Assembly: GCF_000444995.1 (NCBI RefSeq)
Contig: NC_022041.1
Location: 284,001-348,000 of the forward strand
DNA: 64,000 bases
Direction: 5' to 3'
Source: Paracoccus aminophilus JCM 7686
Lineage (GTDB): Bacteria; Pseudomonadota; Alphaproteobacteria; Rhodobacterales; Rhodobacteraceae
Shown here: positions 1-3,549 of the stretch, piece by piece
Layout: every line of letters starts with the position of its first letter
How positions within the stretch are numbered: the stretch's first letter is position 1
Program-made: the position numbers and the translations under genes
The notes under the pieces: generated by a model
The model's database searches: none
What the model was told of the DNA's origin: nothing
What the model saw: only the letters and a program-made list of their open reading frames with translations

Positions 1-412
1 CGGCGCTGTCGAGGCCCGCGCGCGTGCCCACCCCATGATCAAGCATCGCGGCGGCGCGGGTGCGCGCCTGCGCCGATTGATCGCGGCTGGCCTCTGCCGA
101 GGCAAGCTTCGCTTGCGCCACATTGAGCGCCTGTTCCTGCTGCAGCGCGTCGGTGCGTGCGAGCGGCTGATCCTTGGTGACGTGATCGCCCTCGGAGACC
201 ATGACTTCGGCAATGCGCCCGCCCTGGCGAAAGCCGATATTCACAGTGTCGCGCGCCTGAATCGAGCCGGCCAATGTGGTGTCAAAGGTCAGCGGGGCCT
301 CTTTGACGGTCACGATCTCGACCAGCAGCGGGACCTCGACCTGCGCCGGAGCCTCGGCGCGCAGGGGCGTCGCGGCCAGCAGAAGGAGAAAGGGCAGGAT
401 GAGCGACTTCAT
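1..412 (-). CDS. RND efflux periplasmic adaptor (HlyD/MFP family), 5' part only
   Basis: This is the first 137 codons of a gene that runs off the left edge. The ATG at 412 opens a Sec signal peptide (about residues 1-19, ending LRAEA). A biotinyl-lipoyl/barrel-sandwich segment follows around residues 55-88 (IGFRQGGRIAEVMVSEGD), then the first helix of a Gln/Ala-rich coiled-coil hairpin (about 92-125). This order is typical of membrane-fusion adaptors that join an inner-membrane RND pump to an outer-membrane channel. The pump gene would be expected beyond the edge. The substrate cannot be inferred. It is transcribed in the same direction as the kynureninase-like gene, 83 bases away. Confidence 0.85.
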   Translation of the reverse strand, partial: MKSLILPFLLLLAATPLRAEAPAQVEVPLLVEIVTVKEAPLTFDTTLAGSIQARDTVNIGFRQGGRIAEVMVSEGDHVTKDQPLARTDALQQEQALNVAQAKLASAEASRDQSAQARTRAAAMLDHGVGTRAGLDSA

Positions 413-495
413 ATCCAAGGCACGGTTTCCATCATGGCCGCGATTGACCTCAGCTTCGCGGCGATTGTCCAGCCTCTCCCGGTCGTGAGCCCGCG

Positions 496-1674
496 TCATA
501 GGGTCGCGAGCGCCTGTTCCAGCGCGCGCACCGCAGGATCTATGTCTGAGAAATCATTGTAAAGAGGCGCGAAGCCGATGCGCAACCGATCCGGGGCAGG
601 GCAGTCAGCGATAACGCCCTGTGCTTGCAGGCTTTGCGTCAAATGAGCGGCTTTGGGGTGGTGATAGATCAGCTCGGCCCCGCGCGCCGCCGCGATTCGC
701 GGCGAAATCAGCGTGAGGCCCGGGCAATGGGCATCGACCTCTGCCAGAAAGGCCTGCCCGAGCGCGCCCGCGCGTTGGCTGATCGCCGTCAGATCCAGCC
801 CGGCCCAGAGATCGAGAGCCGCGTCGAGCGCGGTGAGCGCGATCAGCGACGGCGTGCCCAGCCGCAGGCGGTCAATCTTGCGCGGCGGGTGAGGATCCGC
901 AGCCGTTTGATCCGGAGAGGATGGCCGGTCGGCCTTTTGTCCCTGCAAAGCGGGGGTGACGCGGTCGATGAAGCGGTTTGACGCCCAGAGAAAGGCCGGG
1001 GCTCCGGGGCCGCCGTTCAGATATTGCTCGGTGCGTCCGACCGCAAAATCGGCGCAGGCACCAGCAAGATCAATCTCCAGCGCCCCGACCGCATGGGAGA
1101 GATCCCAAACCGTCAGCGCGCCCGCCTCATGTGTAAGCCGCGTCAGCGTGGCGATGTCGCGCCGCTCGGCGGTTTGGACATTGACCGCCGACATCGCCAG
1201 CACAGCCACGTCATCGCACAGGCAATAGCAGATCCGCGTGGGATCAATGACGCGCAGACGGCAACCCAGCGCCCGGGCGATCCCCTCCATCACCGCGAGA
1301 TCCGAGGCCGAATTGCTGGTGTCGGTCAGAACGACGGTCCGTTTCGGTCCGGTGTACAGCGAGACCGCCGCGGAAATTGCCTGAAAAAGCTGGAGCTGGA
1401 GCGTTTCCCCCAGCGTGACCTCGCCCTGTCTCACACCGATCAGGGGCGCAATCTTGTCCCCGATCCGGCCCGGCAGATCCTCCCAGTCCGCCGTGAACCG
1501 CTCAGAGCCCAGATCCGCCGCTCCACCCGGCATCATCAGGCGACAGAGCCGCTCTTTCGCCGACCGTGGCATCAGGCCAAAGCGGGAACCCGCAAGATAG
1601 ACCAGCCCGTCGGGCAGATCGAAAGCGGCCTTGCTGCGCGCGAAAATGCTGCCGTCTTCGCTCACCCTTGTCAT
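496..1674 (-). CDS. Kynureninase-like protein lacking the PLP lysine
   Basis: The 392-residue protein aligns by eye with kynureninase (KynU), a PLP enzyme of tryptophan catabolism. Retained features are WDLSHAVGA (Asp191 and His194, PLP contacts), QYLNGGPGAPAF, LRLGTPSLIALTALD, and a C-terminal RIGFAPLY with the substrate-carboxylate Arg. The active-site Lys of the family motif YKYLNGGPGAPAF is here Gln217 (codon CAA at 1024-1026), preceded by Glu instead of Tyr. The GWxGH loop that supplies Trp and His is replaced by an unrelated Pro/Asp-rich stretch, and the N-terminal DGNSLG motif is AGSRFG. The reading frame is intact and AGGAGG precedes the ATG, so it looks expressed. It is probably not a PLP-dependent kynureninase. 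Its actual role is unknown. Confidence 0.8.
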   Translation of the reverse strand: MTRVSEDGSIFARSKAAFDLPDGLVYLAGSRFGLMPRSAKERLCRLMMPGGAADLGSERFTADWEDLPGRIGDKIAPLIGVRQGEVTLGETLQLQLFQAISAAVSLYTGPKRTVVLTDTSNSASDLAVMEGIARALGCRLRVIDPTRICYCLCDDVAVLAMSAVNVQTAERRDIATLTRLTHEAGALTVWDLSHAVGALEIDLAGACADFAVGRTEQYLNGGPGAPAFLWASNRFIDRVTPALQGQKADRPSSPDQTAADPHPPRKIDRLRLGTPSLIALTALDAALDLWAGLDLTAISQRAGALGQAFLAEVDAHCPGLTLISPRIAAARGAELIYHHPKAAHLTQSLQAQGVIADCPAPDRLRIGFAPLYNDFSDIDPAVRALEQALATL

Positions 1675-1870
1675 GCCTCCTGCCGGGAGCTCTCTCGGAA
1701 AGGCTAGGGGCGAATGATGAAGAAAATCGGAAATTAAGGCAGACCGTGAAAATGCACGGCATTAACGCGACCAGCGTGCCGCTGAAACGACTTGCCGCCC
1801 CGCCTTGGGGCCGGGCGGCTTTCGCAGTCCGCGACCGCTGAAACAAGAAGAGGGTCGCGGTTGCGGGGGC

Positions 1871-2698
1871 TTAGGTGGCGCCGAACTCGTCGGGATTGGG
1901 GCCAAAGCGATGCGCGCGATCCATCTGGTCGAGCTTGGTCATCTCGTCATTCGACAGATGAACCTTGAGCGCGCCGAAATTCTCGGCAAGCCGGGTTGCG
2001 CGCAGGGTTTTCGGGATCACCGAGAGGCCATGGCCCAGATGCCAGGCCAGAATAAGTTGCGCCGGCGTGACGCCATGAGCCTTGGCCATCTCGACGATGT
2101 CGGGGTCCGAGAGCAGAATGGACTGACCAAGCGGGCTCCAGCTTTGGGTGATGATGCCCAAAGCGTCATCCTTCGCGCGCATCGCCGTCTGAATGAGATG
2201 CGGATGCAGCTCGATCTGGTTCAGAACCGGCACGATCCCGGTCGCGTCGATCAACTGGTCCAGATGGGCGGCATGGAAATTGGCCACCCCGATCGAGCGG
2301 ACACGGCCTGCGTCGCGCAGTTCGATCATCGCCTTCCAGCTTTCGACGGCCAGATTCTGGGCCGGGACCGGCCAATGGATCAGATAGAGATCGAGGTAAT
2401 CGAGCCTCAGCGCGGCCATCGATTCATCGAAGGCGCGCAGGGTCTTGTCGCGTCCCTGATCCGCGTTCCAGAGTTTCGTGGTGATGAAAACCTCGTTACG
2501 CGGGATGTCCGAACCGGCCAGCCCTTCGCCGACGCCGCGCTCATTGCCATAGATCTTCGCGGTATCGATCAGGCGATATCCCGCCTCGAGCGCCGCGCGC
2601 ACGAGGGCGGGCGTATCGCTGTCGGGCACTTGCCACACGCCCGCGCCGAGCTGGGGCATCCGGTGGCCATCATGAAATTTGAGATAGGGTTGGGTCAT
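1871..2698 (-). CDS. Aldo/keto reductase (AKR5-like)
   Basis: This is a 275-residue NADPH-dependent oxidoreductase of the 2,5-diketo-D-gluconate reductase type. The AKR tetrad is visible: Asp45 and Tyr50 in LIDTAKIYGNE, Lys75 in TTKLWN and His108 in LIHWP. The NADP-binding IPKTLRATRLAEN segment is near the C-terminus. The start is the ATG at 2698; the frame stays open further upstream only because it overlaps fliP antisense. The gene lies 107 bases after fliP on the same strand and may be read through from the flagellar operon, but nothing links it to motility. The substrate is unknown. Confidence 0.88.
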   Translation of the reverse strand: MTQPYLKFHDGHRMPQLGAGVWQVPDSDTPALVRAALEAGYRLIDTAKIYGNERGVGEGLAGSDIPRNEVFITTKLWNADQGRDKTLRAFDESMAALRLDYLDLYLIHWPVPAQNLAVESWKAMIELRDAGRVRSIGVANFHAAHLDQLIDATGIVPVLNQIELHPHLIQTAMRAKDDALGIITQSWSPLGQSILLSDPDIVEMAKAHGVTPAQLILAWHLGHGLSVIPKTLRATRLAENFGALKVHLSNDEMTKLDQMDRAHRFGPNPDEFGAT

Positions 2699-2805
2699 TC
2701 GCTGTCCTTCCGTTCCGCTCGCCGCAGATCTTCGGCCCGGTCTCAACGCGGCGCGGGCCGGAGCGTTCCGCAGTTCAGTTTCGCGGCTCTCATCCGTGGC
2801 GGCGG

Positions 2806-3549
2806 TTATTGATAACTTCGCACCAAGGCAGTGGCGATCATTTCCCAACCGTTCACCGTCACGAAAAACGCCAGTTTGAAGGGCAGCGCGACCACGGCGG
2901 GGGGCACCATCATCATCCCCATCGACATGAGCACGGCCGAGACGACAAGGTCGATGATCAGGAAGGGCAGCGCGATCAGAAAGCCGATTTCGAAGGCGCG
3001 TTGAATCTCGCTGATCATGAAGGCCGGGATCAGCGTGGCGAGATTTTCGGGGTCTGCGGCGCCGCCCGGCGCGATCTCGGCAAAGCTTGCGAGCGTTTCG
3101 GGATCGGTGCGCTTTTCCATGAAGCCGCGGAACGGAGGAATGCCGCGCTCGATGGCCTGATCGAGCGTGATTTCGCCATTGCGCAACGGCGCCCCGGCGA
3201 CCTGCCAAGCTTCGGTCAGCACCGGATTCATCACGAACCATGTCAGGAAGATCGACAGGCTGACGATCAGCATGTTCGGGGGCGATTGCTGCAGCCCCAG
3301 CGACTGGCGCAGGATCGAAAGCACAGTCACGATAAAGGGAAAACAGGTGACGGTGATCGCGATCCCGGGCGCGAGCGACAGTGCGGTCAGCAAAAGCACC
3401 ATGCTGATCGCATTGCGCCCAACGCCGCCGGTCATGGCCTCGAGGCCCGCGCCGGCCGGACCAAGCGCGTCTTGTGCGGTGGCAAGCCCGGGCCAAGCGC
3501 CGATGGCCAGCGCGGCGGCGAACCCGAGACCGAGGGAAAGCCGGTTCAT
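2806..3549 (-). CDS. fliP: Flagellar export gate protein FliP
   Basis: FliP is a core membrane subunit of the flagellar type III export gate (FliP5-FliQ4-FliR1). The 247-residue protein starts with a cleavable signal peptide (about 1-25, ending ATAQ), as is usual for FliP. Then come TM helices around 47-70 and 90-110, a periplasmic loop with GIPPFRGFMEKR, and the conserved C-terminal pair with EIQRAFEIGFLIALPFLIIDLVVSAVLMSMGM. The start overlaps the end of fliN by 4 bases. fliQ does not follow; the next gene is an aldo/keto reductase. Confidence 0.96.
   Translation of the reverse strand: MNRLSLGLGFAAALAIGAWPGLATAQDALGPAGAGLEAMTGGVGRNAISMVLLLTALSLAPGIAITVTCFPFIVTVLSILRQSLGLQQSPPNMLIVSLSIFLTWFVMNPVLTEAWQVAGAPLRNGEITLDQAIERGIPPFRGFMEKRTDPETLASFAEIAPGGAADPENLATLIPAFMISEIQRAFEIGFLIALPFLIIDLVVSAVLMSMGMMMVPPAVVALPFKLAFFVTVNGWEMIATALVRSYQ

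What the first reader, a model, noticed from the sequence alone, without database searches (positions are those of the whole stretch)
496..1674. Kynureninase homologue with glutamine in place of the PLP lysine
The diagnostic motif keeps YLNGGPGAPAF but the Schiff-base Lys is Gln217 (CAA at 1024-1026), the preceding Tyr is Glu, and the Trp/His loop is replaced. Asp191, His194 and the substrate Arg are kept, and the 392-codon frame is intact. A conserved fold without the covalent PLP anchor suggests a binding, regulatory or non-PLP catalytic function.
Basis: partly seen in the sequence, partly recalled or inferred. Interest (0 to 1): 0.7.

Follow-up and report, generated by a model that had tools for sequence, protein, structure and literature searches.

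The report
Lysine-less kynureninase relative in Paracoccus
A bacterial gene descended from the vitamin-B6 enzyme kynureninase has lost the lysine and much of the pocket that hold the cofactor yet stays intact, in a small group where the lysine was probably lost twice while another copy keeps the normal enzyme, so it may do a non-enzymatic job that is still unknown.

Summary
The gene is on the minus strand (496-1674; 392 codons, or 389 from a GTG) and reads GRTEQYLNGGPGAPAF where kynureninases read GCTYKYLNGGPGAPAF. Gln217 (CAA, 1024-1026) replaces the PLP lysine; Ser122, Glu216, Gln246 and Asp249 replace the canonical Phe, Tyr, Trp and His. Asp191, His194, Thr274 and Arg365 remain.
It is not a lone oddity. 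It belongs to a clade (100/100) with P0121 (Lys to Gly) and with P0004 and P0006/P. cavernae, which keep Lys but have lost the Tyr, Trp, Phe and His. Joining the two lysine-less members is rejected (p-AU 0.009), so Lys was probably lost twice. All four frames are full length, and they score 132-150 bits against the kynureninase model (cut-off 246.4).
The gene sits where 55 other similar Paracoccus kynU places lie: just upstream of an RND adaptor gene. This genome and P. cavernae each have a second, canonical kynU elsewhere. In 15 of 20 further loci read, kynU is absent at this place.
Best reading: a retired kynureninase kept as a non-catalytic pseudoenzyme. Its job (ligand or partner binding linked to the pump operon) is inferred, and decay cannot be excluded.

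The parts
496..1674 (-). Kynureninase-like pseudoenzyme gene (392 codons from ATG 1674; 389 if the GTG at 1663-1665 is the start)
1024..1026 (-). Codon CAA, Gln217, in place of the PLP Schiff-base lysine (Lys227 in 1qz9 numbering)
1027..1029 (-). Codon GAG, Glu216, in place of the invariant Tyr (Tyr226 in 1qz9 numbering)
928..939 (-). Gln246-Lys-Ala-Asp249 in place of Trp-x-Gly-His (Trp256...His259 in 1qz9 numbering)
1306..1311 (-). Ser122-Ala123 in place of the invariant Phe-Pro (Phe129-Pro130 in 1qz9 numbering)
1093..1104 (-). Kept pocket residues Asp191 and His194 (WDLSH)
580..582 (-). Kept arginine, Arg365 (Arg375 in 1qz9 numbering; its role with the substrate carboxylate is recalled)
2..499 (-). 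5' part of the first RND periplasmic adaptor gene (mfp1). Start at 499 by longest frame, more likely at 412 where a signal-peptide-like stretch begins (judged by eye); continues left of the window (L062:13342-14499)
1871..2812 (-). Aldo-keto reductase, DkgA-like (316.8 bits, under the 425-bit cut-off; likely start 2698). 57% identical to a DkgA-like gene near the canonical kynU of G018; that gene was seen in 5 of 12 canonical-kynU loci compared
2806..3549 (-). fliP, edge of the flagellar block that flanks this operon in this genome and in P. cavernae

Best explanation
This is the positional descendant of the ordinary Paracoccus kynureninase (KynU) that stands at the head of a kynU-mfp1-mfp2-RND pump operon, now a pseudoenzyme. 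With a kynureninase of another lineage present elsewhere in the genome (contig C5), the pocket of the operon copy eroded in steps: the positions of the stacking Phe-Pro, the Tyr and the loop His are changed in all four members of the clade, and Lys went separately in this lineage (Gln) and in P0121 (Gly). The protein keeps the fold and part of the pocket (Asp191, His194, Thr274, Arg365). It is most likely retained as a non-catalytic binding protein: either a ligand sensor or chaperone for an aromatic amino-acid-like compound handled by the RND pump, or a non-catalytic dimer partner. Shown by computation: identity, position, second copy, pocket losses, clade, full-length frames; double Lys loss supported by one test. 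Inferred: loss of kynureninase activity, the order of events relative to gaining the second copy, continued selection on this particular copy, and the binding role.
For: Pocket: five invariant positions lost at once, 237 of 237 canonical rows keep each. Clade: this protein, P0121, P0004 and the P. cavernae copy are one clade, 100/100; window plus P0121 as one clade rejected, p-AU 0.009. Scores: TIGR01814 139.7 bits here, 132.3, 147.5 and 150.4 for the other three, against 290.1-294.6 for the three normal Paracoccus copies tested and a cut-off of 246.4. Position: 57 of 70 kynU places at least 46% identical to P0006 (this genome and P. cavernae among the 57) lie within 600 bases 5' of mfp1 on the same strand, 0 of 40 less similar ones do (from the lists). 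G063 has a canonical kynU at kynU-mfp1-mfp2-RND-recQ, P. cavernae and this genome have the divergent one there, and 15 of 20 further loci, chosen by me mostly from the best mfp1 matches, have fliP directly beside mfp1 with no kynU. Second copy: canonical motif, 340.8 bits. Constraint: P0004 and P0006 differ at 29 of 65 of the most variable columns but 7 of 88 of the most conserved. In a neutral simulation of this gene (substitutions only), a drift to 66% identity leaves 1.5% of 400 runs free of stops.
Against: No function has been measured, and nothing shows ligand or partner binding. The window copy has lost 31 of 89 near-invariant canonical columns (one of them a C-terminal gap), and the losses are not concentrated in the pocket (7 of 14 pocket versus 51 of 75 other columns kept, p 0.23; p 0.55 to 1 for the other three), which also fits generally relaxed constraint. 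Window against P0121, the two lysine-less proteins, differ at 45 of 88 conserved columns, a weak gradient (46 of 61 at variable ones), and the P0004/P0006 gradient is not smooth (14 of 57 in the second most conserved class, 10 of 96 in the third). P0121, P0004 and P0006 come from a library of predicted proteins, which would not show broken copies. Selection on the window copy itself could not be measured because no close relative's DNA was available. The Lys-bearing members might still be enzymes.
Confidence: 0.6

Rival explanations
1. Dying relic: the gene has no function and is drifting; it is intact only because loss of constraint is recent in each lineage.
For: A canonical kynU is present. 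In 15 of 20 further loci read the gene is absent at this place. Broad losses at conserved columns outside the pocket, and a weak gradient between the two lysine-less proteins. Long end branch, 1.25. Another genome, G123, carries an internally deleted second kynU elsewhere, so spare copies do decay.
Against: Pocket departures shared by four lineages look old, yet all four frames are full length. A conserved/variable gradient persists between P0004 and P0006. Neutral drift over such distances would leave stops (indels not modelled).
Confidence: 0.25
2. A lysine-less PLP or PMP enzyme: cofactor bound without a Schiff base, doing altered chemistry, as in the sugar dehydratase ColD where His stands for Lys (recalled).
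For: Asp191, His194, Thr274 and Arg365 are kept (roles recalled).
Against: The Tyr, Trp and stacking Phe are lost as well, Gln and Gly offer no obvious base, and the two Lys losses gave different residues (roles recalled).
Confidence: 0.08
3. Non-catalytic subunit that pairs with the canonical KynU of the same cell and tunes it, as LCB1 (no PLP lysine) does with LCB2 in serine palmitoyltransferase. This is one form of the best explanation, so the odds overlap.
For: Kynureninase is a fold-type I dimer (PMC7461572, section 10 read). Both genomes of the clade that could be read carry a canonical KynU. The LCB1/LCB2 precedent is in PMC3794620 (passages).
Against: The two proteins are only 38% identical and, in this genome, lie on different contigs. 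Interface retention was not tested.
Confidence: 0.12
4. Sequencing or assembly error.
For: Gln (CAA) is one base from a Lys codon.
Against: Changes at many pocket positions, intact frame in a 3.6-Mb contig, and related pocket losses in three other sequences.
Confidence: 0.01

Closest known systems
Kynureninase KynU, EC 3.7.1.3 (P. fluorescens 1qz9; Paracoccus KynU)
   Different: No Schiff-base Lys; Tyr, Trp, Phe and His of the pocket lost; TIGR01814 score 139.7 against a cut-off of 246.4
LCB1/SPTLC1, the lysine-less subunit of serine palmitoyltransferase (PMC3794620, passages read)
   Same: Fold-type I homologue (fold recalled) that lacks the PLP lysine and works beside a catalytic relative
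   Different: LCB1 is a known heterodimer partner; nothing of the kind is shown here
ColD-type lysine-less PLP enzymes (recalled, nothing read)
   Same: Fold-type I protein without the lysine
   Different: ColD keeps cofactor binding and a catalytic His (recalled); here several cofactor-side residues are gone

Membership tests
Kynureninase (EC 3.7.1.3) | Schiff-base lysine | tested here: not met
   Gln217; 237 of 237 canonical rows have Lys; 80 of 80 loci from named genomes have Lys (the best 80 of 395)
Kynureninase (EC 3.7.1.3) | Pocket Phe, Tyr, Trp and His (129, 226, 256, 259 in 1qz9 numbering) | tested here: not met
   Ser122, Glu216, Gln246, Asp249
Kynureninase (EC 3.7.1.3) | Asp, His, Thr and Arg (201, 204, 282, 375 in 1qz9 numbering) | tested here: met
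   Asp191, His194, Thr274, Arg365
Kynureninase (EC 3.7.1.3) | Score over the TIGR01814 equivalog cut-off | tested here: not met
   139.7 of 246.4 bits
Kynureninase (EC 3.7.1.3) | Cleavage of kynurenine to anthranilate and alanine | not testable with these tools
   needs purified protein
Kynureninase fold superfamily (Aminotran_5 + KYNU_C) | Domain content and fold | tested here: met
   Pfam KYNU_C 79.7 and Aminotran_5 44.8 bits, both over cut-off; model against 1qz9
Pseudoenzyme under selection | Intact frame long after loss of the active site, with residual constraint | tested here: inconclusive
   Clade-level support; this copy's own dN/dS could not be measured
Lysine-less PLP/PMP enzyme (ColD type) | Cofactor-binding pocket kept apart from the lysine | tested here: inconclusive
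   Asp, His, Thr and Arg kept; stacking Phe, Tyr and Trp lost (residue roles recalled)
Heteromeric non-catalytic subunit (LCB1 type) | Physical pairing with a catalytic homologue | not testable with these tools
   only co-occurrence shown

The most novel reading that the evidence does not exclude
Paracoccus has turned an old kynureninase into a cofactor-free protein with a new, selected role tied to an RND efflux operon (ligand sensor or pump/enzyme partner). The lysine was discarded twice in parallel, and clade-specific residues (Cys138, Cys149-Tyr150, Cys207, Glu90, Arg172) belong to the new function.
Probability: 0.3. Interest if true: 0.65.

Novelty: new variant of a known kind. Interest (0 to 1): 0.45.

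Why it matters
The genus offers a readable series at the head of one pump operon: canonical KynU, KynU with the pocket changed but Lys kept, Lys gone (probably twice), and no kynU at all. That makes it possible to test when a PLP enzyme stops being one and why the protein is sometimes kept. It also warns against annotating such proteins as kynureninase, and it flags a conserved neighbourhood of kynU and an RND pump in Paracoccus.

Tried and rejected
Sequencing error or chance: rejected. 'Gln clade': rejected; among 311 database proteins Gln occurs only in P0001, which is this gene itself. One shared Lys loss: rejected at p-AU 0.009, but I named the group after seeing the tree, both rows are on long branches, and P0121 has an odd amino-acid make-up. 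Translational coupling of kynU and mfp1 as the reason for the intact frame: considered, then dropped, because the apparent ATGA overlap depends on an mfp1 start 29 codons before its signal-peptide-like start. A promoter near this gene: no sigma-70-like site in the 601 bases scanned, L062:15500-16100, which is window 1500-2100. Pocket-concentrated loss: not significant in any of the four proteins (the list of pocket positions is partly recalled). kynB as pathway support: the TIGR03035 search found weak matches in 6 of 12 genomes and none over cut-off, so it says little. Literature on lysine-less kynureninases: 'kynureninase + pseudoenzyme' (1 paper, by title and abstract start a tumour-therapy review), 'kynureninase + Lys227' (0), 'kynureninase-like + lacks + lysine' (0), 'kynureninase + Paracoccus' (3 papers) and a search for kynureninase with pocket residue names (4 papers, none holding 'kynureninase') gave no report of such a protein in what I saw, which was listings and abstract starts. 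Searches were listings with abstract starts. This covers only open-licence PMC papers. PMC6522883 was opened for one passage and was not useful.

Full report

Pocket. On an alignment of 243 rows (222 database proteins, 20 proteins read from genome stretches including the window gene and the P. cavernae copy, and 1qz9), 237 rows outside the divergent group all carry Phe129, Pro130, Asp132, Tyr226, Lys227, Trp256, His259 and Thr282 (1qz9 numbering; a few rows are identical or near-copies). The window protein has Ser, Ala, Asp, Glu, Gln, Gln, Asp and Thr there. The roles of these residues are recalled; the two kynureninase papers that I tried to open are not held. Among 311 database proteins (the top-120 lists of three searches with 1052, 7436 and 1878 hits) only P0001, which is this gene, and P0121 lack the lysine. 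Of 196 loci in which the column could be read, 191 have Lys and 5 have Gln; the 5 are copies of this same gene, other loci are also fetched more than once, and the 80 loci from named genomes (the best 80 of 395) all have Lys.

Clade. P0121 (Gly at the lysine; Tyr to His, Phe to Ala, His to Gln, Trp kept) and P0004 and P0006 (Lys kept; Tyr to His, Trp to Gly, Phe to Ala, His to Arg) group with the window protein, 100/100. Holding the window protein and P0121 together as one clade is rejected (p-AU 0.009), so Lys was probably lost twice; the group was named after the tree was seen, both branches are long, and P0121's amino-acid make-up is odd. A clade of these four plus 20 ordinary Paracoccus-type rows is not rejected (p-AU 0.52). 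All four score 132-150 bits against TIGR01814, while the three normal Paracoccus copies tested score 290-295. Eleven positions are shared by all four and rare (under 5%) in canonical rows, among them Cys138, Cys149 and Cys207; the four have 8-13 cysteines against a canonical mean of 2.8.

Place. To the left of the window the gene is followed on the same strand by two RND adaptor genes and an RND permease, and then recQ on the other strand. In the genus lists, 70 kynU places are at least 46% identical to P0006; 57 of them, this genome and P. cavernae included, lie within 600 bases upstream of mfp1 on the same strand, and none of 40 less similar places does (places as listed; the 46% line was set after seeing the list; some of the other 13 are near contig ends or in genomes with no mfp1 match). 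G063 has a kynU 73% identical to a canonical one at kynU-mfp1-mfp2-RND-recQ. P. cavernae has fliP, a hormone-sensitive-lipase-family gene, the divergent kynU, mfp1, mfp2, RND and recQ; this genome has fliP, a DkgA-like reductase, the Gln version, mfp1, mfp2, RND and recQ. Of 20 further loci read (chosen by me, mostly from the best mfp1 matches), 15 (L203-L209 and L211-L218) have fliP beside mfp1 with no kynU between; the other five are L201 (the G063 locus), L210 and L220 (canonical kynU beside mfp1), L202 (a 2.6-kb gap between fliP and mfp1 without a kynU match) and L219 (mfp1 with neither). The P. cavernae assembly is 79% complete and shows frame breaks in several genes of this stretch, so its neighbours' frames should not be over-read; its kynU match has no stop inside.

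Second copy. This genome has a canonical kynureninase on contig C5 (GCSYKYLNGGPGAPAF, GWWGH, SFPTD; 340.8 bits) and P. cavernae has another, on the same contig as its divergent copy (341.0 bits). Of 104 genus genomes with a match, only these two carry both a copy at least 46% identical to P0006 and one of at most 41%. Tryptophan dioxygenase is also present in this genome, over its cut-off; it was over the cut-off in 3 of 12 genomes searched. So a tryptophan-to-kynurenine route is plausible. Whether the second copy came before or after the erosion of the first is not shown.

Is it kept by selection? P0004 and P0006, whose common ancestor presumably had already lost Tyr and Trp, differ at 29 of 65 most variable columns but at 7 of 88 most conserved ones, with an uneven slope between (14 of 57 in the second most conserved class, 10 of 96 in the third). 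Six ordinary pairs compared the same way differ at 0 to 2 of 89 conserved columns. So constraint is weaker than in enzymes but present. Window against P0006 gives 46 of 61 and 33 of 88; window against P0121, 46 of 61 and 45 of 88, a weak gradient. The window protein has lost 31 of 89 near-invariant columns (canonical rows: median 0 lost, worst 18), not concentrated in the pocket (all). A simple neutral simulation of this gene (400 runs a step, substitutions only) leaves 37% of runs without a stop at 90% identity, 13% at 81% and 1.5% at 66%. Three of the four proteins come from a library of predicted proteins, where broken copies would not show. I therefore hold 'retained pseudoenzyme' at 0.6 and 'dying relic' at 0.25.

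How it would work. Without Lys, Tyr, Trp and Phe, covalent PLP chemistry is not expected. The kept Asp, His, Thr and Arg could still hold a carboxylated aromatic ligand (inference). The recurrent company of an RND pump suggests a compound that is exported or sensed (inference). The alternative is a non-catalytic partner of the second KynU, with LCB1/LCB2 as precedent (PMC3794620, passages); kynureninase is a dimer (PMC7461572, section 10).

Verdict. The finding is real and somewhat richer than stated: a small lineage of kynureninase relatives with lost pockets, two of them without the lysine, rather than one odd gene. Pseudoenzymes as such are well known (established knowledge), so it is a new variant of a known kind.

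Noticed in passing
L062:9171-14499 (left of and into the window, 1-499): Two RND adaptor genes and an RND permease follow kynU. mfp1 matches (E up to 1e-40) were found in 113 of 125 genus genomes, and 57 of 70 kynU places of the similar type sit just upstream of mfp1. A pump linked to kynurenine metabolism would be worth testing.
   Followed up: partly
L225:6533-7264 (genome G123): A second kynU-like gene of that genome with an internal deletion: residues 2-211 of a canonical query match, then residues 356-395. A decaying copy for comparison; described only.
   Followed up: partly
window 496-1674, residues 138, 149, 207: Three cysteines shared by the divergent clade and rare in canonical rows; cysteine count 8-13 against a mean of 2.8.
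   Followed up: no
L066:11292-12080 and relatives (cluster c3): A hormone-sensitive-lipase-family hydrolase lies beside canonical kynU in 9 of 12 canonical-kynU loci compared and beside the P. cavernae copy; it could be an arylformamidase-like enzyme (inference). No match at the window's locus (L062).
   Followed up: no
L202 (genome G035), between fliP and mfp1: A 2.6-kb stretch between fliP and mfp1 without any match to the kynU queries; contents not read.
   Followed up: no
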